Below, one piece after another: positions 6,318-25,106 of a DNA stretch of 38,668 nt. Made by a program: the position numbers and the translations under genes. The number at the start of each line of letters is the position of its first letter. Within the stretch, counting starts at the first letter, position 1. Location: IMG/VR virus record IMGVR_UViG_3300043403_000107, positions 1 through 38,668 of that record; one strand, written 5' to 3'. The notes beneath the pieces are model-generated. The model was given only the letters and a program-made list of their open reading frames with translations. It was not told the DNA's origin and searched no databases. Source of the DNA: a virus.

Positions 6318-6601
6318 GCTCTTACCCCTGACCTAATCAATGCGTGCTTCCGGCACCATGCGCCGCTAGCCGCGCCACCGAAAAGTCCGCCGGCTTTCTC
6401 GCCGCAGCCCGACTCGCGGCAGAGCGACGGGTCTTTAATCTCTGGCGCTAGAGTCGCCCGCTCGCGCGCGTCATCGTCGGAACGCGCGTCATCCGTCGCC
6501 TGGGAAGGGGGCGAACTGGGGAAGTCAGACAACTCCAGCGCCAGAGATTTGATTCCGAGCGCGCGCATGTCGATGCACAGCTGCTCGAGTAGGTTGCTCA
6601 T
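6314..6601 (-). CDS. Small protein with Cys/His zinc-like motif
   Basis: A 95-residue protein whose ATG (6601) overlaps the large terminase stop as ATGA; its own stop overlaps the portal start. The first 25 residues form a leucine-rich helix (MSNLLEQLCIDMRALGIKS), the middle is acidic and disordered, and the end carries CRESGC then WCRKH about 20 residues later, a CxxxC...CxxH pattern that could bind one zinc. Its place between terminase and portal suggests packaging or assembly, but no function is known. Confidence 0.65.
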   Translation of the reverse strand: MSNLLEQLCIDMRALGIKSLALELSDFPSSPPSQATDDARSDDDARERATLAPEIKDPSLCRESGCGEKAGGLFGGAASGAWCRKHALIRSGVRA

Positions 6602-8133
6602 GCGAATGCTCCCCGCAACCGGTCGGCCGCGGCCTTCATCGGGTTGCTCTTGCTCGAGTTGATGAGATCGCAAAGCCGCCGCTCTTCGTCGTCGAGCATG
6701 TCCGGCTCCGCGGCAAACTCTGGATGCGGTAGATGCTTCAGCGCCAAGCACAAGGCCGGCGCGTAGTCTCCGTGTCGCCCGTCGCCCGTGTTCGGCAAAA
6801 CGATCTGGTAGGAGCGCGACGTGAGCTTGCGCTGGATGCCGAGAATATCCGCCCGCAGGGCAGCATTTGGGGGAAGGCTGATCGTGTGTTCGCTCACGTG
6901 CTTCTCGAGCGCTTTGGCGTGCGCCTTCCATTCGGCTTCCGTGAAAGGGTCGGCCGCGAGGCTGATACCCGCGTTGCCAGCGAGTTCGTGCTTGTCGTCG
7001 AAGCTCGCTTGGTCGGTCCAGAGTGTCTCGACGCCGTACTCTTCGAGCGTCGGCTTCATTTGCTCGAACACGCGGCTTGAGCGGAGCGGCGCCGACTTGC
7101 TGCCCATCCACTGCCTCACGTGAACTACCTCTGGCGATCCGTCGGCACGGGGCCGCATAACCACAAGCGTCCAAGCGTTGCGGCGGTTCGCCGGGTCGAT
7201 GGCCGCGGTGCATGGCTGGTCGTTCGGCGCGAGCTGTTCGCCGCCGGCTGGTCGCGTGCACTGCTCGACATCGATGCTCGACAAGAGCGAGTCTTCCGGA
7301 TCGGCGAACAAGGCCAGCACGTCGGTTCGGTAAGCACGCGGATCCTCTTTCTTCAGCTTGGCGCAAAACTCCGGCGTAAAGTGCCCTGGGTTCATGTCCG
7401 GCCCCTTGGCGATCATGAACAGCACGTCATCACCAGGCCGACCGAAGCGGTCTAGATAGAGGTCGTAGATTGGGCCGCGCGGTGCCCACGGACTGCCCAG
7501 CAAATCAATCTGAGCGCCTGGTAACAAGCGGCCACGAACAGCACTGAGCGCATCGGGTAGGTTGACCACGCCGTCTTCTTGCCCTTGCATGCGCGGCGCT
7601 TCGTCAAATGCGACTCCGATCGACCAGCGCGAGACGAGCGAGCCGCCCGCCTTCTTGCCGGCAACGACCTTAACCTCAACCACGCGGTCATGCTGCTCGT
7701 TGTAGATGTACAGCGAATCAGCTCGAGCGCGTCGGACAAACGGGGCCATGAGCGGCGAACCCATGACGGTCCCGCTGAAATGCTCAAACGTGGCCTGCGC
7801 CTTGTCGACGTCGAGCGAGACAATCGAGTAGCGCGCAATCTCGCCCTCGCGGATGCTGCTCAGGTCGCAAGTCTGCGTCGAGCGGAACGCCTTACATGCG
7901 ACCTTGAGCGACTTGGCCGAGCGGATTGCGGCGAGCAGGCACACGAGCGAAGGCGGCTGGGAGGGTAGCAACCCGAGAGCCTGCGCGCCGCCCAATGCCT
8001 CGACGACTGCCGGCTCGTCGGCGTACTCAGCAAGCGGTTCGCCAGTCTCGACGCGCGCGATCGCGCGCTGCAGCTTCGTGGCCGTTTTGAGTCCGAAGCC
8101 GTGCTCGTGGGTGAGCAGGGTTTCAAGGTTCAA
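6598..8133 (-). CDS. terL: Terminase large subunit
   Basis: A 511-residue packaging motor. The N-terminal ATPase has a degenerate Walker A-type loop (AIRSAKSLK, residues 69-77) and a Walker B with catalytic Glu (IGVAFDEA, D177/E178). The C-terminal RNase H-like nuclease shows the first metal Asp in CTAAIDPANRR (D313), a second in ETLWTDQASF (about D374) and a third candidate in GRHGDYAPA near the end. It cuts concatemeric DNA and pumps it through the portal. The start is taken as TTG 8133, which overlaps the upstream stop as TTGA and matches TTG starts elsewhere here; an ATG at 8187 would add 18 residues. The small subunit is not adjacent. Confidence 0.9.
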   Translation of the reverse strand: MNLETLLTHEHGFGLKTATKLQRAIARVETGEPLAEYADEPAVVEALGGAQALGLLPSQPPSLVCLLAAIRSAKSLKVACKAFRSTQTCDLSSIREGEIARYSIVSLDVDKAQATFEHFSGTVMGSPLMAPFVRRARADSLYIYNEQHDRVVEVKVVAGKKAGGSLVSRWSIGVAFDEAPRMQGQEDGVVNLPDALSAVRGRLLPGAQIDLLGSPWAPRGPIYDLYLDRFGRPGDDVLFMIAKGPDMNPGHFTPEFCAKLKKEDPRAYRTDVLALFADPEDSLLSSIDVEQCTRPAGGEQLAPNDQPCTAAIDPANRRNAWTLVVMRPRADGSPEVVHVRQWMGSKSAPLRSSRVFEQMKPTLEEYGVETLWTDQASFDDKHELAGNAGISLAADPFTEAEWKAHAKALEKHVSEHTISLPPNAALRADILGIQRKLTSRSYQIVLPNTGDGRHGDYAPALCLALKHLPHPEFAAEPDMLDDEERRLCDLINSSKSNPMKAAADRLRGAFA

Positions 8134-8681
8134 TTGCTGCCGACCTTGGCCCGATACTTCTTCTGTTGCTCTAGACACTCCGCGCAAATCGCGCCGATTG
8201 CCTCACGGACGAAGCTCTCCGCGCTCGTCCGCGCAATGTCGACCCGCTCGCGCGCCGGCAAAGTAAACGTGACCGTGTAATCCTCGCTCGGCATCACGAG
8301 CCCGCGGCCAGCAGCGTCGACACTCGTGCTGTCCTGACCGGTCATCACAAACCCGAGCCCGTTCGGCTCAGGCAGCGCGCAGAGCATGACGATGTTTTTA
8401 TGCTTCAGGCGCTTGTTGGTCTCGCGCATGATTTCGTTGCACAAGCGCTTCCAGACTTCCTGCTCGGCGGTCGTGAGCGGGCGACCCTCGAGAAGCTCGA
8501 CGTTTGCGGCGATCACATCCTGCTCGGATTCGAGCGCGTCTAGAGCGTCGTCGATGCCAGGCGTCTTGACGATTCCGGCAGGCGCGCTGAAGTTGGTAGC
8601 GACGGGTGTTTCACAGGCGGAAAGATACGCCGCCGCAGGCTCTCCCTGCGTACCATGCCCGCCGCCGCCAGAGTCTGTCAC
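8130..8681 (-). CDS. Hypothetical protein upstream of the large terminase
   Basis: A 183-residue soluble protein starting at GTG 8681, which overlaps the upstream stop as GTGA. The first 40 residues are Gly/Ser/Ala-rich and look disordered. The middle is helical (EQEVWKRLCNEIMRETNKRLK), and the end has a short strand region and CAECLEQQKKYRAK, a CxxC that could bind metal together with other residues. It immediately precedes the large terminase with coupled translation, so a packaging-related role is possible. No family recognised. Confidence 0.65.
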   Translation of the reverse strand: MTDSGGGGHGTQGEPAAAYLSACETPVATNFSAPAGIVKTPGIDDALDALESEQDVIAANVELLEGRPLTTAEQEVWKRLCNEIMRETNKRLKHKNIVMLCALPEPNGLGFVMTGQDSTSVDAAGRGLVMPSEDYTVTFTLPARERVDIARTSAESFVREAIGAICAECLEQQKKYRAKVGSN

Positions 8682-8905
8682 TTTCGTCCCTGCTGCTGCG
8701 CCTCGACCAGCACGTCGGCATATTCGATAGCGCTGGCAGGGATGGCCTTAGTCACGCCGTCGCGCACCACAATGACCCACTGCCCGCGCTCCTCGAGACT
8801 CTCGACGGCCGGCGCGCGCTCGTTCGGCGTGGTCTCGAGCGAGCCTGACGACGTGTTGCCGAAAACGATCCGCGGGTGAGTAAAAACGATCTTGGTGAAT
8901 CTCAT
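8678..8905 (-). CDS. Small hypothetical protein
   Basis: A 75-residue protein starting at ATG 8905, three bases after the upstream stop. It has an N-terminal beta stretch (MRFTKIVFTHPRIVFGN) and a second hydrophobic strand region (QWVIVVRDGVTKAIPAS), which resembles small beta-barrel folds. It is coupled to the next gene by a GTGA overlap. No known motif and no function assigned. Confidence 0.6.
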   Translation of the reverse strand: MRFTKIVFTHPRIVFGNTSSGSLETTPNERAPAVESLEERGQWVIVVRDGVTKAIPASAIEYADVLVEAQQQGRK

Positions 8906-8908
8906 CAG

Positions 8909-9211
8909 CTAGCCTTTCTTCCCGCCGCCGAACACCGCAAGGCTCGGCAGCTTCCGCGCGCTCGACGGCGCCGACACGCCCATCAGCTCGGGCAGCGCAA
9001 GCGCAACGTCCCGCATAATCTGCAGGTCCGGCGCGGTTACCTCGTCGCCGTGCTTAGTCATGTAGGTGCGCGCCTCGGCAGCGTCCCAAACGCGCACCAA
9101 GTAGGTAAGACACGCCTCGCGCCGCTTGCCCTCGTCGGGCTCTTCCGCGATTTCCTGCAGCGCGATCAGCGGGTAGACCCTGCTCGACCGAATAGGCGTG
9201 ACTTTTGACAT
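8909..9211 (-). CDS. Hypothetical protein
   Basis: A 100-residue, mostly helical protein. The ATG at 9211 is preferred because GGGAAAA precedes it; a TTG at 9238, two bases beyond the upstream stop, is an alternative start adding nine residues. The central part (LIALQEIAEEPDEGKRREACLTYLVRVWDAAEA) is helical and charged, and the C-terminus is Gly/Lys-rich. It lies between the metzincin-like gene and packaging genes. No family recognised. Confidence 0.6.
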   Translation of the reverse strand: MSKVTPIRSSRVYPLIALQEIAEEPDEGKRREACLTYLVRVWDAAEARTYMTKHGDEVTAPDLQIMRDVALALPELMGVSAPSSARKLPSLAVFGGGKKG

Positions 9212-9239
9212 TGTTTTCCCGTTAGCAATTTCCCACAAG

Positions 9240-9908
9240 TCAAGGTCTTTGTCTAGCTGTCCGGCACGTCGGCCGAACGATTTCCCCGAGCAGCGCCGAA
9301 AGCTCGGCCGCGTCGCTCGGATGTACGCAAGCCTCGCCCTCGGGGATCGCATTCATCAGCCCGCCAGGCTCCGGCGAATGCTCGAGCCCGTACGCGTGCC
9401 CCAGCTCGTGCATAACGGCCAAGTCCCAGCGTGCTTGCTCGGCGCCGATCCGCTCGGTGGTAACCAGTACGGTCCGGGTCTCAGCGTCCCACATGGCCAT
9501 CGCGCGGTCCTGGTCGCCGTTAGGTTCGCGCTCCGCGTAGCCGGCCACATCCGGAGCCCAGCCGGCAGCGGCAGACCAGCCTGAGGTCGCCTGAGCGATC
9601 GCGAGCCGCCAGTGCTCGGCGGTCGTGCCCGTGCCGCCAAGCGTGCCGGGCACGGCGGGCACGCTTCCCGAGCAGCCCAAAAGCAGCAGGGCGCAAGCAA
9701 ACAGTAACAAACCGCGGATGTTACCGGCGACGACACGCGCGCGCGTGCGCAGGCGCGATGCCCGGACAAGCGGCCGGCACAACCGTGACAAAACGACCCA
9801 GAGCAGCAAGAGCATCAAGAGCATCATCCACCCAGACTTTACATTTTGCGCGCACGTGAGAGAAGTCTGGGCGGAAGGTGCACTCTGCTGCTCTCCTGCT
9901 CTTTTCAC
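9240..9908 (-). CDS. Putative metzincin-type zinc metalloprotease lipoprotein
   Basis: The frame contains HELGHAYGLEH (residues 167-177 from GTG 9908), the metzincin zinc site HExxHxxGxxH, followed eight residues later by GGLMN, which fits a Met-turn, as in matrixins. Upstream is a hydrophobic segment ending in a lipobox (LLLLGC, Cys79), so the catalytic domain would be lipid-anchored outside the cytoplasm. A further hydrophobic run (residues 28-40, MMLLMLLLLWVVL) precedes it. The GTG at 9908 overlaps the helicase stop as GTGA; ATG 9827 is an alternative giving a shorter leader. Possible roles are envelope breakdown at lysis or modification of surface proteins. Neither activity nor export is demonstrated. 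Confidence 0.65.
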   Translation of the reverse strand: MKRAGEQQSAPSAQTSLTCAQNVKSGWMMLLMLLLLWVVLSRLCRPLVRASRLRTRARVVAGNIRGLLLFACALLLLGCSGSVPAVPGTLGGTGTTAEHWRLAIAQATSGWSAAAGWAPDVAGYAEREPNGDQDRAMAMWDAETRTVLVTTERIGAEQARWDLAVMHELGHAYGLEHSPEPGGLMNAIPEGEACVHPSDAAELSALLGEIVRPTCRTARQRP

Positions 9909-11326
9909 GATTCGCCGTCCATGGGCAGCCGCTCCCGGATGCCGAACCAAAGCCGCTTCCCCCCTGTGCTCTTTTCCGTGCAATCTCGGGCTCTTAGCTT
10001 CTCCGCGATCTGCTTCGAAGTGAGGAGAAACTTGCGGTTAACTTCCTTCCCCCACATCTCATACCTTGTGCGCAACTCACTCCTAGTGACGCTACCGCCT
10101 TCCTCCAGCACGTAACAGTCAGAGAGGAATTCTGAAAAATGGTCCAACTCCTGGCGGTATTCGGCCGTCGAGTCGGTTACTGCGCGACTCTGGCCAAGCC
10201 CGTGCTCCATGTAGGCCACGCACCCCAAAATGGCCCAGCTCAGGATGGCGCGCGCGTTCTCCGGCTCCCGAAGCTTGAGCTTGAGCGTCTTGTCTTGCTG
10301 CTCGAGCGGAATCTTCGCTACGAGTGGGATCCGGCGCATGCGTGCCCAAAAGCCTTCGTCGTCCTCTCGGGCGATTGGTGAGTCGTTGGCGGCAAAGAGC
10401 AGCGAGCAGCTAGGGCGAAAGCTCACGTCGTTCTCGTACTTGGCGGCAGCGGTCAGCTGGTCGCCGCCGGTGATGCGCTTCAGCAGCGCCTCATCCCACT
10501 TGGCGCCGGGCTTCACTTCCACGCTTGTCACGAGCCGAGCGCCAGCGATGCGCACGAGGTCGCCTCGGTTGCCGCCGGTGCGCTCTTGCACCAGCCAGGT
10601 GTCGAAGGACGCATCCTGCGCGTAGTCGCCCATGGCAGCGTGCAGCGCCTCGATTAGCGTGCTTTTGGCGGTACCCGGGGGGCCGTAAAGAAAAAAGAAA
10701 ACGCGCTCAAGCGGTAGGCCAATGAGGCTGTATCCGGCAACGCGCTGCAGGTAGGTGGCGAGCTCGGCATCGCCTCCCGTGGCATCGTGCAGCACCTTGG
10801 CCCAGAGCTCCGACTTTGCACCTGGCAGGTATTCGACGCCGGTGCAGCGCGTGATTAGGTCGGCTCGGTTGTGTGGGCGCTGCTCGCCGGTGCGCAGGTC
10901 CACGGTGCCATTGGAGCAGTTGAGCAGCCATGGATCTGCATCTAGGTCGACCATCATAACCGGCACGCCGGCCTCGCTCTGGGCCAAGCCCGTTAGCGCC
11001 TTGATTGCCTTAGCGGACTCGGATTGCAGCGAAAATTGAAACACGCGCGCCGCTTCCTTCCCCTCGAGCAGCGCCGCTTCGTCGCGAATGCGGCGCACGG
11101 CGCGCTTAGCCATCCGTTCGATCGCGAAGGTCTCATCCCAGCGCCAGCGCGTACCATCCCAGAGCAGCCATTTGCGCCGCTGGCCGCTGTAGCGGATTCG
11201 GTCGCGGTAGTGCGCGACGAGCCGCTCCGCGTTGCCCAAGTCCGTGAGGTTGAACGCGCGCGGGAATGACGTGATACCGGTGTCAGGCTCCTCATCAGGA
11301 GCCCACTCATCCGCGGCCACGCTCAC
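9905..11326 (-). CDS. D5/P4-type primase-helicase (SF3 helicase)
   Basis: A 473-residue replication protein. A D5-N-like region (roughly residues 40-200, with LLNCSNGTVDLRTGE) is followed by a superfamily 3 helicase core whose Walker A is GPPGTAKST (215-223, Lys221). Further on are a Walker B-like segment near residue 265 and a sensor-type strand (CSLLFAANDSP). A winged-helix-like C-terminus follows. It unwinds DNA at the phage origin. The classic N-terminal primase catalytic domain is not present, so priming probably comes from elsewhere. The start is GTG 11326, overlapping the upstream stop (GTGA). It is the second gene of the long minus operon. Confidence 0.9.
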   Translation of the reverse strand: MSVAADEWAPDEEPDTGITSFPRAFNLTDLGNAERLVAHYRDRIRYSGQRRKWLLWDGTRWRWDETFAIERMAKRAVRRIRDEAALLEGKEAARVFQFSLQSESAKAIKALTGLAQSEAGVPVMMVDLDADPWLLNCSNGTVDLRTGEQRPHNRADLITRCTGVEYLPGAKSELWAKVLHDATGGDAELATYLQRVAGYSLIGLPLERVFFFLYGPPGTAKSTLIEALHAAMGDYAQDASFDTWLVQERTGGNRGDLVRIAGARLVTSVEVKPGAKWDEALLKRITGGDQLTAAAKYENDVSFRPSCSLLFAANDSPIAREDDEGFWARMRRIPLVAKIPLEQQDKTLKLKLREPENARAILSWAILGCVAYMEHGLGQSRAVTDSTAEYRQELDHFSEFLSDCYVLEEGGSVTRSELRTRYEMWGKEVNRKFLLTSKQIAEKLRARDCTEKSTGGKRLWFGIRERLPMDGES

Positions 11327-14678: not shown

Positions 14679-14914
14679 CCGCCGCAAAGCTCCCAGCCCG
14701 AATACATCCGCGCCAAGGCCCGCTCGACGGCCTTCAGTTTCCAGCTCGCATCGAACGTCCCGAGCCGCCTGAACACAGCGCGCATCGCCAAAAGCTGCTC
14801 TTCGCTGGCCGTCCGCACGGTATCGAGAAAATGCAAATCGACCATGCGGCGTGACTCCTGGAACGGATGCGCCGGGTGGTCTGTGCTTCCGGGCTGGGCG
14901 TCGTTGGCGTTCAC
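14675..14914 (-). CDS. Hypothetical protein
   Basis: A 79-residue protein starting at GTG 14914, which overlaps the upstream stop (GTGA); an ATG at 14962 would lie inside the preceding gene. The second half is helical (EEQLLAMRAVFRRLGTFDASWKLKAVERALAR, given in part) and the C-terminus ends in WELCGG. It is coupled to the ERCC4 nuclease. No recognised domain. Confidence 0.6.
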   Translation of the reverse strand: MNANDAQPGSTDHPAHPFQESRRMVDLHFLDTVRTASEEQLLAMRAVFRRLGTFDASWKLKAVERALARMYSGWELCGG

Positions 14915-15387
14915 CGGCTCAATCTCCCATAGGTTGCGATCCGCTGCCCGAGTCCGGGCCAAGTCGTATCACCGCACCGTCGGCCGGCGTAGGCATTGAT
15001 GGTCCCCTGGAGCCACGGAACTCCCGAGCGGCTACAGGTGTAGTAGGCCCGCTTGAGCTGGTCGGACACCAGCCGGGTCTGTAGCGGGATGTCTCCGTCT
15101 TGCTTGGCCCACTCGGCTAGGTTGGTTGAGTTGGCATGGAGCTGGCCCCAGCCCTTGGCGCGTCCGTGGTCGCACTCGTGCTTCTTGCAGTGCCCGTCGA
15201 TGATGCGCTTGGAAAAGCCGGATTCGTTGATGCCGACGGAGGCTAGCAGGGCGCGCCATTCGCCCGGCGGCCTCGGCGCGTGCGCGGATTCCGCGACGAT
15301 TGCGGCCTCGACAGCCGCCAGGTGCGACTGGTCGGCCCGGTCCTCGGCTGACGCGAGGGCTAGTAACAGGGCTAGGAATTTGCTCAT
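14911..15387 (-). CDS. Secreted lytic transglycosylase-like protein
   Basis: A 158-residue protein from ATG 15387 (ATGA overlap). A short hydrophobic leader (MSKFLALLLALASAED) looks like a signal peptide or signal anchor. The body resembles the SLT/goose-lysozyme layout: GINESGFS with candidate catalytic E55, AKGWGQLH, and later NAYAGRRCGD and GLGQRIATY. Four or more cysteines (HCKKHEC, YTC, RRC) suggest disulfides outside the cytoplasm. It would cut peptidoglycan glycan strands. Its location in the early-type DNA metabolism operon, away from the main endolysin (23927), is odd and may mean an entry, lysis-timing or superinfection role. Confidence 0.6.
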   Translation of the reverse strand: MSKFLALLLALASAEDRADQSHLAAVEAAIVAESAHAPRPPGEWRALLASVGINESGFSKRIIDGHCKKHECDHGRAKGWGQLHANSTNLAEWAKQDGDIPLQTRLVSDQLKRAYYTCSRSGVPWLQGTINAYAGRRCGDTTWPGLGQRIATYGRLSR

Positions 15388-15842
15388 GGTTTTGCGACCA
15401 CCTCTGCTTGAATTTCGGCAGGCGTCAGAAATGCAAGACGCGCCAACTCCGGCGGCGGATCGCGTTGCCAGCGCTCCTGAAAATCGTGGCCGCAATCCAG
15501 AGCGATGGCGGGCCAGTCCGACTCGTAGTTCAGCCAGCGCGTCTGCTCGTACGTGAGAGCCTGACTGTAGTAGCCAGGCTCTCGGCTAGCGCGGCGCTCC
15601 TGCATTGCGCGCTCGTTCGCTGCCCGGTGAATAACGCACAGCTCGCGGTAGATGGTGTCGCACCGCAGGCAACGGATCGTTTCGTCGACTTCGCCGCCGT
15701 ATATTAGCGTATGCCGCGCGTACAAGTGCCCACGCTCAATCGTCTCTTTGCAGGCGTGGCAGCGGTGTTCTTTACGCGCCCGCATGCGGCGCTCGTTGTT
15801 CACGACGACGGGCTCGTCGCCGTCTCCGCAATCGACGCTCAT
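15384..15842 (-). CDS. Zinc-ribbon protein
   Basis: A 152-residue protein from ATG 15842 (ATGA). HRCHACKETI and TIRCLRCDTI give two CxxC pairs about 25 residues apart, a zinc-ribbon knuckle layout, preceded by a basic stretch (RRMRARKEHR). The C-terminal third is helical and includes DCGHDF. Proteins with such a two-CxxC N-terminal region are frequent in phage early operons; their partner is unknown. Coupled to the transglycosylase-like gene downstream. Confidence 0.65.
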   Translation of the reverse strand: MSVDCGDGDEPVVVNNERRMRARKEHRCHACKETIERGHLYARHTLIYGGEVDETIRCLRCDTIYRELCVIHRAANERAMQERRASREPGYYSQALTYEQTRWLNYESDWPAIALDCGHDFQERWQRDPPPELARLAFLTPAEIQAEVVAKP

Positions 15843-23635: not shown

Positions 23636-23930
23636 TGGAAGCGAGCTTTTCCCGCACTTCGCTCACTAGCTGCTGGCTCGCCCGGCGCAGCTGCCGCGTT
23701 TCGTTGACGTACTCGCCGATCATGGCGGTTAGGTGTTCCAGGCGCTGGTCCATTGATAAGTATAACTCCTCGAGCTTTTGCAGGCTCTTAGCCGACTCCT
23801 CTGTTGCATGCGCGTCATCTTCCAAGGACGACTCGAGATTGGCAAACCGCGCGTCGATTGAGCTTAGGCGCGTGTCGAACGTCTCGAGGGTTACGGCGAT
23901 GCGCTCGAGCGGGTCGTTTTCGTCGGTCAT
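23628..23930 (-). CDS. Coiled-coil protein in the lysis region
   Basis: A 100-residue protein from ATG 23930 (ATGA with the endolysin stop). It is coiled coil almost throughout, with heptads such as RLSSIDARFANLESSLEDDA and LEELYLSMDQRLEHLTAMI. No hydrophobic membrane segment. It lies between the endolysin and a tail-anchored membrane protein, and the two may form a complex analogous to a split spanin or an assembly partner. Inference only. Confidence 0.6.
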   Translation of the reverse strand: MTDENDPLERIAVTLETFDTRLSSIDARFANLESSLEDDAHATEESAKSLQKLEELYLSMDQRLEHLTAMIGEYVNETRQLRRASQQLVSEVREKLASNG

Positions 23931-24643
23931 GATTTCGGCTTATCGAATAGGGCCGCCTGCGTAATGGTGCCGGCGATGCCGTCCGCATCTAGGTCTTTAT
24001 CGCGCTGAAACGTCATCACGGCGCGCGCCGTTATCGGCCCGTAAACGCCGTCAGCTTTGAGACCTGCCGCCATGTAGGCGTTCAGCGCCGCCTGCAGCTT
24101 GCTCACGTCTGGACCAGTCGAGCCGATGCGCAGCGTGCGGCGCCAAGGGTCCGGCATTGTGTCTTCGTCGTCTGGTGCCGGGCTTGGATCCGTGTCGGCT
24201 GCCGCCGGGAGGAGCGGCTCAATGGAGTAGAAGGTGATCCCGGCCGACGACGTGTGTTTGTGCCTGGCAGCGTGCGGCGTGTTCCCAGCAACGTCGCCCC
24301 AGTCAAGCTCATGGTTCCAGTACTCGACGACCATGTGATGCGCGAACGGGATGGCCTTGACCGCAATGTCACCGGGGCGCGGGTAGGGCACTGAGTGCAG
24401 TGGACCAAGAAAACCTATGCCGTCGTGCCAGTACAGGTTACGCGCGACGCCAGCCAGGTGAAGGCAGTGCAGCGCAAACCCACCGCACCATTCGCGGGTT
24501 TTGGCGTACTGGATGACCTGTTCCGTTCGCCAGCCTTCGGGCAGCACATCCCGCCATATTTCGTACACCTCCGGTGAGCCCTTGCCGTACGGGCCGATCA
24601 GGCTCGCAGCAGCTTCAACGATCGCCACCCGGGCGGCGCGCAT
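23927..24643 (-). CDS. Endolysin: cysteine amidase/peptidase with peptidoglycan-binding domain
   Basis: A 238-residue lysis enzyme. The N-terminal domain has the NlpC/CHAP-type cysteine peptidase pattern: REWCGGFALHCL with candidate nucleophile C53, then FAHHMVVEYWN with the catalytic His (H102 or H103). A Pro/Asp-rich linker (about residues 148-165) leads to a C-terminal peptidoglycan-binding-1 domain (RIGSTGPDVSKLQAALNAYM, then DGVYGPITARAVMTFQR). It cuts the cell wall at lysis. No signal peptide is visible, so it needs a holin or other route. It starts with a TAATG overlap at 24643. Confidence 0.87.
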   Translation of the reverse strand: MRAARVAIVEAAASLIGPYGKGSPEVYEIWRDVLPEGWRTEQVIQYAKTREWCGGFALHCLHLAGVARNLYWHDGIGFLGPLHSVPYPRPGDIAVKAIPFAHHMVVEYWNHELDWGDVAGNTPHAARHKHTSSAGITFYSIEPLLPAAADTDPSPAPDDEDTMPDPWRRTLRIGSTGPDVSKLQAALNAYMAAGLKADGVYGPITARAVMTFQRDKDLDADGIAGTITQAALFDKPKS

Positions 24644-24852
24644 TACTCGCCGGTCCCCGCGTGCCGTTTCGCCGCGAACGCCGCATCGAGCACAGCGTCG
24701 GCCGCATGCTCGTGCGCCGTGACTTGCAGCGCTCGAGCGAGCGCGTCTTTGGGCGACGGCGACGAGACTACGCGGCGAATCAGCTCGGCTAGCTCAGCCA
24801 GTAGCGACACCGGAACAAGCGCGATAGCCCGTGCCAAGGCTTCGGGAATCAT
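24643..24852 (-). CDS. Small helical protein upstream of the endolysin
   Basis: A 69-residue protein from ATG 24852 (ATGA overlap with the preceding lipoprotein gene). The first 40 residues form an amphipathic hydrophobic helix (EALARAIALVPVSLLAELAEL), and the remainder is charged helix. It may associate with the membrane and take part in lysis, but it is not a typical holin. The stop shares bases with the endolysin start (TAATG). Confidence 0.55.
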   Translation of the reverse strand: MIPEALARAIALVPVSLLAELAELIRRVVSSPSPKDALARALQVTAHEHAADAVLDAAFAAKRHAGTGE

Positions 24853-25106
24853 TGGGGACACGCTTTCAGCAGGTCGGCCTTGTGTAGCGCCCGGAGCGAG
24901 GGCCACTCGGGACAACTCTCTTTCGCGTCGTACGTCACGCAAGCCGCCATGACGTTCGCTACATAGGCCGCGTCAATCGCGCTTAGCTTGGCTTCGTCGC
25001 ACGGCAGCCGGCCGCCGCAGCCGGCCAGCACGAGACCGAACAGCCCCATCACCGCCCGAACGAGACAGCGCGGGCAGTAGCAGCCGAAGCCGTGAACCTT
25101 GCTCAC
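24849..25106 (-). CDS. Small lipoprotein in the lysis cassette
   Basis: An 85-residue protein from GTG 25106 (GTGA overlap). It carries a lipobox, GLVLAGC, near residue 30, after a hydrophobic stretch; an internal ATG at 25049 would give a shorter, more typical signal peptide. The mature part has four cysteines (PCDEAKL, AACVTY, ESCPEW, KACPQ). Small phage lipoproteins beside endolysins often act as outer-membrane spanin subunits, but no partner inner-membrane spanin is clear. The Cys-rich mature form is unusual for a spanin. Confidence 0.57.
   Translation of the reverse strand: MSKVHGFGCYCPRCLVRAVMGLFGLVLAGCGGRLPCDEAKLSAIDAAYVANVMAACVTYDAKESCPEWPSLRALHKADLLKACPQ

What the first reader, a model, noticed from the sequence alone, without database searches (positions are those of the whole stretch)
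9240..9908. Phage-encoded metzincin-type lipoprotein protease
HELGHAYGLEH with a following GGLMN matches the HExxHxxGxxH zinc site and Met-turn of metzincins such as matrixins. A lipobox (LLLLGC) precedes it, which predicts a lipid-anchored extracytoplasmic protease encoded between the helicase and packaging genes. Metzincins are rare in phage genomes, so a role in envelope processing, lysis or receptor modification would be unusual.
Basis: partly seen in the sequence, partly recalled or inferred. Interest (0 to 1): 0.65.

Follow-up and report, generated by a model that had tools for sequence, protein, structure and literature searches.

The report
Lipid-anchored matrixin-like protease in a phage
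This uncultured phage carries a gene for a small zinc protease of the collagenase-like (metzincin) superfamily with a signal that should tether it outside the inner membrane; such proteases are almost absent from named phages but recur in uncultured virus contigs, often beside packaging genes, so it is a real accessory phage gene of unknown target, perhaps helping lysis.

Summary
On the minus strand, an open frame ends at 9240 and encodes HELGHAYGLEH, GGLMN and an upstream lipobox (LLLLGC). Pfam matrixin PF00413 scores just above its cut-off (24.2 vs 24). An AlphaFold model built on relatives has the metzincin topology, and Foldseek's best hits are matrix metalloproteinases. Third-codon-position GC puts the likely start at ATG 9827 (195 aa), not GTG 9908. 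The gene lies between a primase/helicase and terminase genes.

'Rare in phages' is half right. Searches of 50,697 named phage records found only two hits, both host-like contigs mislabelled as phage. A motif scan of IMG/VR hit its limit at 119 stretches; all 80 fetched lie in open frames. Several are lipoproteins or secreted proteins next to terminase genes (L045, L055, L183, L188). The gene is absent from the window's nearest relatives, so it is accessory.

Function is inferred, not shown. Best guess: an extracytoplasmic accessory lysis protease; the precedent is the phage-associated metzincin Mtz of Listeria, which sensitises cells to phage lysis. Superinfection exclusion by cleaving a surface protein is the main rival. 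Family known, phage context little described: new member of a known kind, moderate interest.

The parts
9240..9827 (-).
   Evidence: translation; codon-position GC supports coding from about residue 16-28 on; PF00413 24.2 bits vs cut-off 24
9774..9827 (-). First N-terminal segment (residues 28-45): hydrophobic MMLLMLLLLWVVLSR plus first basic residues; role unclear
   Evidence: Sequence; AF2 helix 19-50
9672..9689 (-). Lipobox LLLLGC, Cys = residue 79 of the 222-aa frame, preceded by an Arg-rich stretch; predicted SPII site, Ser at +2
   Evidence: Sequence; same architecture in L045, L055, L131, L122, L102, L183
9564..9623 (-). Predicted helix A of the metzincin N-terminal subdomain (residues 96-115)
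   Evidence: AF2 model
9378..9410 (-). Zinc-binding consensus HELGHAYGLEH on predicted helix B
9351..9365 (-). Met-turn GGLMN
   Evidence: Met invariant in 26 aligned sequences, which were chosen by the motif
9288..9320 (-). Predicted C-terminal helix C (residues 197-207)
   Evidence: AF2 model
9905..11326 (-). Upstream neighbour: D5-type primase/helicase
   Evidence: PHROGs 5.1e-103
6598..9352 (-). Downstream genes: 8909-9352 and 8678-8905 (unknown, conserved in relatives), 8130-8681 (small-terminase position, no family match), 6598-8187 (large terminase)

Best explanation
The gene is an accessory ('moron'-type) phage gene for a compact matrixin-like metzincin. It is exported by Sec, processed as a lipoprotein and held in the periplasm by its lipidated Cys, probably on the outer membrane since +2 is Ser (if the host is Gram-negative). 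There the zinc-dependent protease would cleave an envelope protein. The most likely use is to weaken the envelope, or to activate or release another envelope protein, late in infection, so that lysis is more complete. Shown computationally: family, motif, predicted fold, export and lipobox signals, position, recurrence in other virus contigs, absence from the nearest relatives. Inferred: activity, lipidation, membrane, timing, substrate and benefit.
For: PF00413 match for this protein and for 24 of 26 motif-selected viral homologues. AF2 topology and MMP hits, Foldseek probability 1.00, E down to 1.5e-5. Lipobox plus catalytic domain recurs in distinct virus contigs: L045, L055, L131, L122, L102, L141, L183. 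Terminase neighbourhood recurs even in contigs found by metzincin similarity alone: L183 (helicase - metzincin - large terminase) and L188 (terminase - metzincin - portal). Another uncultured family fuses a peptidoglycan-binding domain to a full matrixin domain, beside small membrane proteins (L165). In Listeria, Mtz expressed with lipoprotein Tim increases phage-mediated lysis and virion release about 5-fold, requires Mtz proteolysis, and listerial prophages carry mtz-tim downstream of holin and lysin (PMC8235301).
Against: In this phage the gene is about 14 kb from the CHAP/PG-binding endolysin at 23927-24643, not in that cassette, and no TIMP-like partner sits next to it. It is missing in the closest relatives, so it is not needed for lysis in this group. 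The MMP-like model depends on an alignment of motif-selected matrixins; alone the sequence gave no usable model (pLDDT 40). Mtz is from a Gram-positive and is itself not lipidated. No activity, expression or host data.
Confidence: 0.42

Rival explanations
1. Superinfection exclusion or receptor removal: the lipid-anchored protease sits in the outer membrane and cleaves a surface protein used as phage receptor, protecting the infected cell from rival phages.
For: The slot is variable: L004/L010 has an unrelated lipoprotein-like ORF on the opposite strand, and the more distant L005 has a glycine-rich lipoprotein upstream of its terminase genes. Variable surface cargo is typical of exclusion genes. 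A nominal excess of lipobox ORFs upstream of TerL was seen (4 of 6, p 0.017, too few to lean on). L045, with a lipoprotein metzincin, also has a recombinase-like gene and may be temperate.
Against: Known phage exclusion lipoproteins block rather than cleave receptors (own knowledge). The window shows no obvious integrase, so a long-lived protected state is less likely. L014, L011 and L007 carry no lipoprotein in the slot.
Confidence: 0.25
2. Virion-associated or released protease: it travels with the particle, or is shed at lysis, and helps penetrate a proteinaceous surface layer or matrix of the host.
For: Some viral metzincins lie beside tail or structural genes (L141, L134, L189).
Against: A signal peptide with lipobox argues against packaging in a cytoplasm-assembled virion, and the gene lies outside the tail cluster in this window.
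Confidence: 0.1
3. Passenger gene: a host lipoprotein metzincin carried by chance or for a metabolic or surface benefit to the host, without a specific phage function.
For: Lipoprotein metzincins are a known bacterial kind (NCBIfam TIGR03952 and myxosortase-dependent metalloprotease models among weak hits). Absence from nearest relatives shows gain or loss.
Against: Recurrence next to terminase genes in several lineages, and an intact frame with phage-like codon-position GC.
Confidence: 0.17
4. Not an active protease: a degenerate or chance metzincin-like frame.
For: Pfam score only just above cut-off, covering residues 146-188; shortened loop regions; no useful single-sequence model.
Against: All zinc ligands, the catalytic Glu and the Met-turn are intact; chance simulation; coding-like GC3; identical gene in a second contig, L002.
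Confidence: 0.06

Closest known systems
Matrixins (Pfam PF00413, MEROPS M10A; human MMP catalytic domains)
   Same: HExxHxxGxxH, Met-turn, helix A / sheet / helix B / helix C order; Foldseek best hits are MMP-11, MMP-13 and MMP-1
   Different: Compact domain with no His in the loop that carries the structural zinc of MMPs, no pro-domain with cysteine switch, bacterial-type lipoprotein signal; TM-score only about 0.5 by target length
Listeria monocytogenes phage-associated metzincin Mtz with lipoprotein Tim (PMC8235301)
   Same: Exported metzincin with HExxHxxGxxH/D and Met-turn in a phage-related locus; affects sensitivity to phage lysis
   Different: Mtz has an SPI signal and its partner Tim is the lipoprotein; here the protease itself carries the lipobox and no adjacent Tim-like gene is seen
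Snapalysin (M7, Streptomyces), a minimal metzincin
   Same: Very small metzincin catalytic domain; Foldseek hit 4hx3, E 1.4e-3, target TM 0.57
   Different: Secreted, not lipidated; bacterial, not phage
Bacterial metzincin lipoproteins (NCBIfam TIGR03952, 'zinc-dependent metalloproteinase lipoprotein')
   Same: Lipid-anchored metzincin; matched weakly by one viral homologue in A4
   Different: The window protein itself does not match this model
Phage spanins and exclusion lipoproteins (own knowledge)
   Same: Phage-coded lipoproteins acting in the envelope; T7 keeps its spanin genes beside terminase genes
   Different: Those are not proteases

Membership tests
Metzincin clan | HExxHxxGxxH/D zinc-binding consensus | tested here: met
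   HELGHAYGLEH, residues 167-177
Metzincin clan | Met-turn downstream of the third ligand | tested here: met
   GGLMN, Met185, 8 residues after His177
Metzincin clan | Two-subdomain fold: helix A, mixed sheet, helix B with the motif, helix C | tested here: met
   Model and Foldseek; caveat: mean pLDDT 69.5, sheet region 55-68, alignment-dependent
Matrixin (PF00413 / M10A) | Profile match above curated cut-off | tested here: met
   24.2 vs 24 bits, marginal
Matrixin (PF00413 / M10A) | Structural zinc/calcium loop and pro-domain cysteine switch as in MMPs | tested here: not met
   No His between residues 100 and 166; no pro-domain before helix A (sequence). So matrixin-like, not a classical MMP
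Bacterial-type lipoprotein (SPII) | Basic n-region, hydrophobic h-region, lipobox Cys | tested here: inconclusive
   Arg-rich stretch, LLLFACALLLLGC, Ser +2; but -2 is Leu, a second hydrophobic segment precedes it, and no dedicated signal-peptide predictor was available
Active zinc endopeptidase | Zinc-dependent proteolysis, lost with catalytic Glu mutation | not testable with these tools
   Needs an enzyme assay
Listeria Mtz-Tim type system | Adjacent Tim-like lipoprotein partner | tested here: not met
   Downstream genes are conserved non-exported ORFs; a small lipoprotein gene lies far away at 24849-25106
Phage lysis cassette gene | Location with holin/endolysin | tested here: not met
   Endolysin at 23927-24643, about 14 kb away

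The most novel reading that the evidence does not exclude
Lipid-anchored metzincins form an unrecognised, recurrent class of phage envelope proteases, repeatedly acquired next to terminase genes by unrelated phages of uncultured hosts, that add a proteolytic step to lysis or strip receptors from the host surface.
Probability: 0.35. Interest if true: 0.7.

Novelty: new member of a known kind. Interest (0 to 1): 0.42.

Why it matters
If active, it would add a protease to the known ways phages remodel the envelope of their host (muralytic enzymes, holins, spanins, exclusion lipoproteins). Because similar genes recur in many uncultured virus contigs but hardly in named phage records, the class may have been overlooked, and it gives a concrete, simple test: wild type against a catalytic-Glu mutant for lysis and for superinfection.

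Tried and rejected
Phage relatives in INPHARED: the only hits ('Acinetobacter phage MD-2021a', Matrixin) lie among dnaK, grpE, purK, purE and mpl, so the contigs look like host chromosome; rejected as phage precedent. Prophage relatives in GTDB to find a host: none with A2; two contigs with A5, both possibly phage contigs binned into MAGs; host left open. Structure of the mature domain alone: useless. Enrichment of lipoproteins upstream of TerL: nominal p 0.017 with n = 6 under one of two lipobox filters tried; not relied on. NCBIfam 'lipo-invert' hit: below cut-off and in the hydrophobic N-terminal part; rejected. Conservation of the catalytic Glu among homologues cannot count as evidence because those homologues were picked by the motif. 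Promoter/terminator scan near the gene: nothing found. L055 is only loosely alike (no convincing BLAST alignment over the site, and HELLHAIGVWEH has one extra residue). A first A6 alignment call failed on a frame error and was repeated.

Full report
Observation. The window is a 38.7-kb virus record. On the minus strand a frame ends at 9240. Read from GTG 9908 it gives 222 residues with LLLLGC, HELGHAYGLEH and GGLMN. First-order Markov surrogates of the window yield the bare zinc motif about once per 120 windows, and never in a long frame with a downstream Met (0 of 600). Codon-position GC shows non-coding values before about residue 16 and phage-like values after it, so ATG 9827 is the likelier start. 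The frame then begins with a hydrophobic stretch, an Arg-rich stretch, and a second hydrophobic stretch that ends in the lipobox. That double arrangement is unusual and unexplained.

Family and fold. PF00413 (matrixin) is the only Pfam model above its cut-off, narrowly (24.2 vs 24 bits), and over residues 146-188 only. By sequence the nearest solved structures are human matrix metalloproteinases, over about 25 residues. With 25 viral homologues as alignment, AlphaFold2 gives helix A, three strands, helix B with the motif, and helix C (mean pLDDT 69.5). Foldseek returns MMP-11, MMP-13 and MMP-1 first and snapalysin further down. The alignment was motif-selected and the sequence alone does not fold in AF2, so the fold is supported but not independently proven. 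The loop that carries the structural zinc in MMPs has no His here, and there is no cysteine-switch pro-domain: matrixin-like rather than a classical MMP.

Neighbourhood. Upstream is a D5-type primase/helicase; downstream are two small conserved ORFs, a gene in the small-terminase position, large terminase and portal. The endolysin is about 14 kb away. A second contig, L002, carries a near-identical stretch (99.98% over 9 kb, metzincin identical). Fifty-four IMG/VR contigs share the TerL family. The nearest ones lack the metzincin: L004/L010 (TerL 73%, primase 66%) has a lipoprotein-like ORF on the opposite strand in that slot, and L014, L011 and L007 have other genes. The gene is thus accessory.

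Relatives. Within the TerL-related set, L045 (lipoprotein metzincin directly upstream of TerL) and L055 (a variant, HELLHAIGVWEH, just downstream of TerL on the other strand) carry metzincin-like lipoproteins. These two were found by scanning around TerL, so their position is biased. A pattern scan for HE[LF]GHAxGxxH in IMG/VR stopped at its limit with 119 stretches; all 80 fetched lie in open frames and 70 have a Met downstream. A profile-based scan matched 445 stretches, nine with a confirmed relative. Of those, L183 has helicase, lipoprotein metzincin and large terminase in the same order as the window, although its terminase belongs to a different family, and L188 has the metzincin between terminase and portal. 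L165 and similar contigs encode a PG-binding domain fused to a strong matrixin domain (64.3 bits), next to small membrane proteins. In named phage records five metzincin queries plus the window protein found only the two mislabelled Acinetobacter contigs.

Function. The only experimental precedent found is Mtz-Tim of Listeria monocytogenes (PMC8235301). Mtz is a secreted metzincin that cleaves a lipoprotein, Tim; expressing both sensitises cells to phage lysis and raises virion release about 5-fold, dependent on Mtz proteolysis, and listerial prophages carry the pair downstream of holin and lysin. By analogy, the window protein most likely acts in the envelope as a lysis helper (0.42). The competing reading is superinfection exclusion by cleaving a surface receptor (0.25), suggested by the variable slot. 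A passenger gene (0.17) or a virion protease (0.10) are less likely. No step after export has been shown.

Novelty. Family known; phage metzincins reported once in the papers found; lipid-anchored metzincins known from bacteria (TIGR03952). What is new here is the recurrence in uncultured virus contigs and the terminase neighbourhood, which deserves an unbiased count.

Noticed in passing
window 24849-25106 (-): Small Cys-rich lipoprotein (LVLAGC) beside the endolysin; similar small lipoproteins follow the metzincin gene in L094 and occur in L040: possible o-spanin-like protein, no family match.
   Followed up: partly
window 14911-15390 (-): Exported protein resembling L014:3927-4535 (GINESGF / GTHESRF and a later GxxQxH), lysozyme/transglycosylase-like by eye; no Pfam or PDB match.
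   Followed up: partly
L055:6693-7214: Metzincin-like lipoprotein with one extra residue before the third His (HELLHAIGVWEH).
   Followed up: partly
L093:7759-9083: Two lipoprotein-like genes in tandem; the first is a metzincin and the second has a similar N-terminal part.
   Followed up: no
L165:8862-11398 and similar contigs L071, L078, L081, L101, L130: Recurrent uncultured phage family with PG-binding plus matrixin fusion among small membrane proteins; looks like a lysis region.
   Followed up: partly
CAKLQH020000026.1, CAKLQF020000029.1: INPHARED records named 'Acinetobacter phage MD-2021a' look like host chromosome; two tandem matrixin genes there are bacterial (contents read in the first record only).
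   Followed up: yes
L102:2008-4565: Four lipoprotein-like genes close together, one a metzincin, next to a serine recombinase.
   Followed up: no
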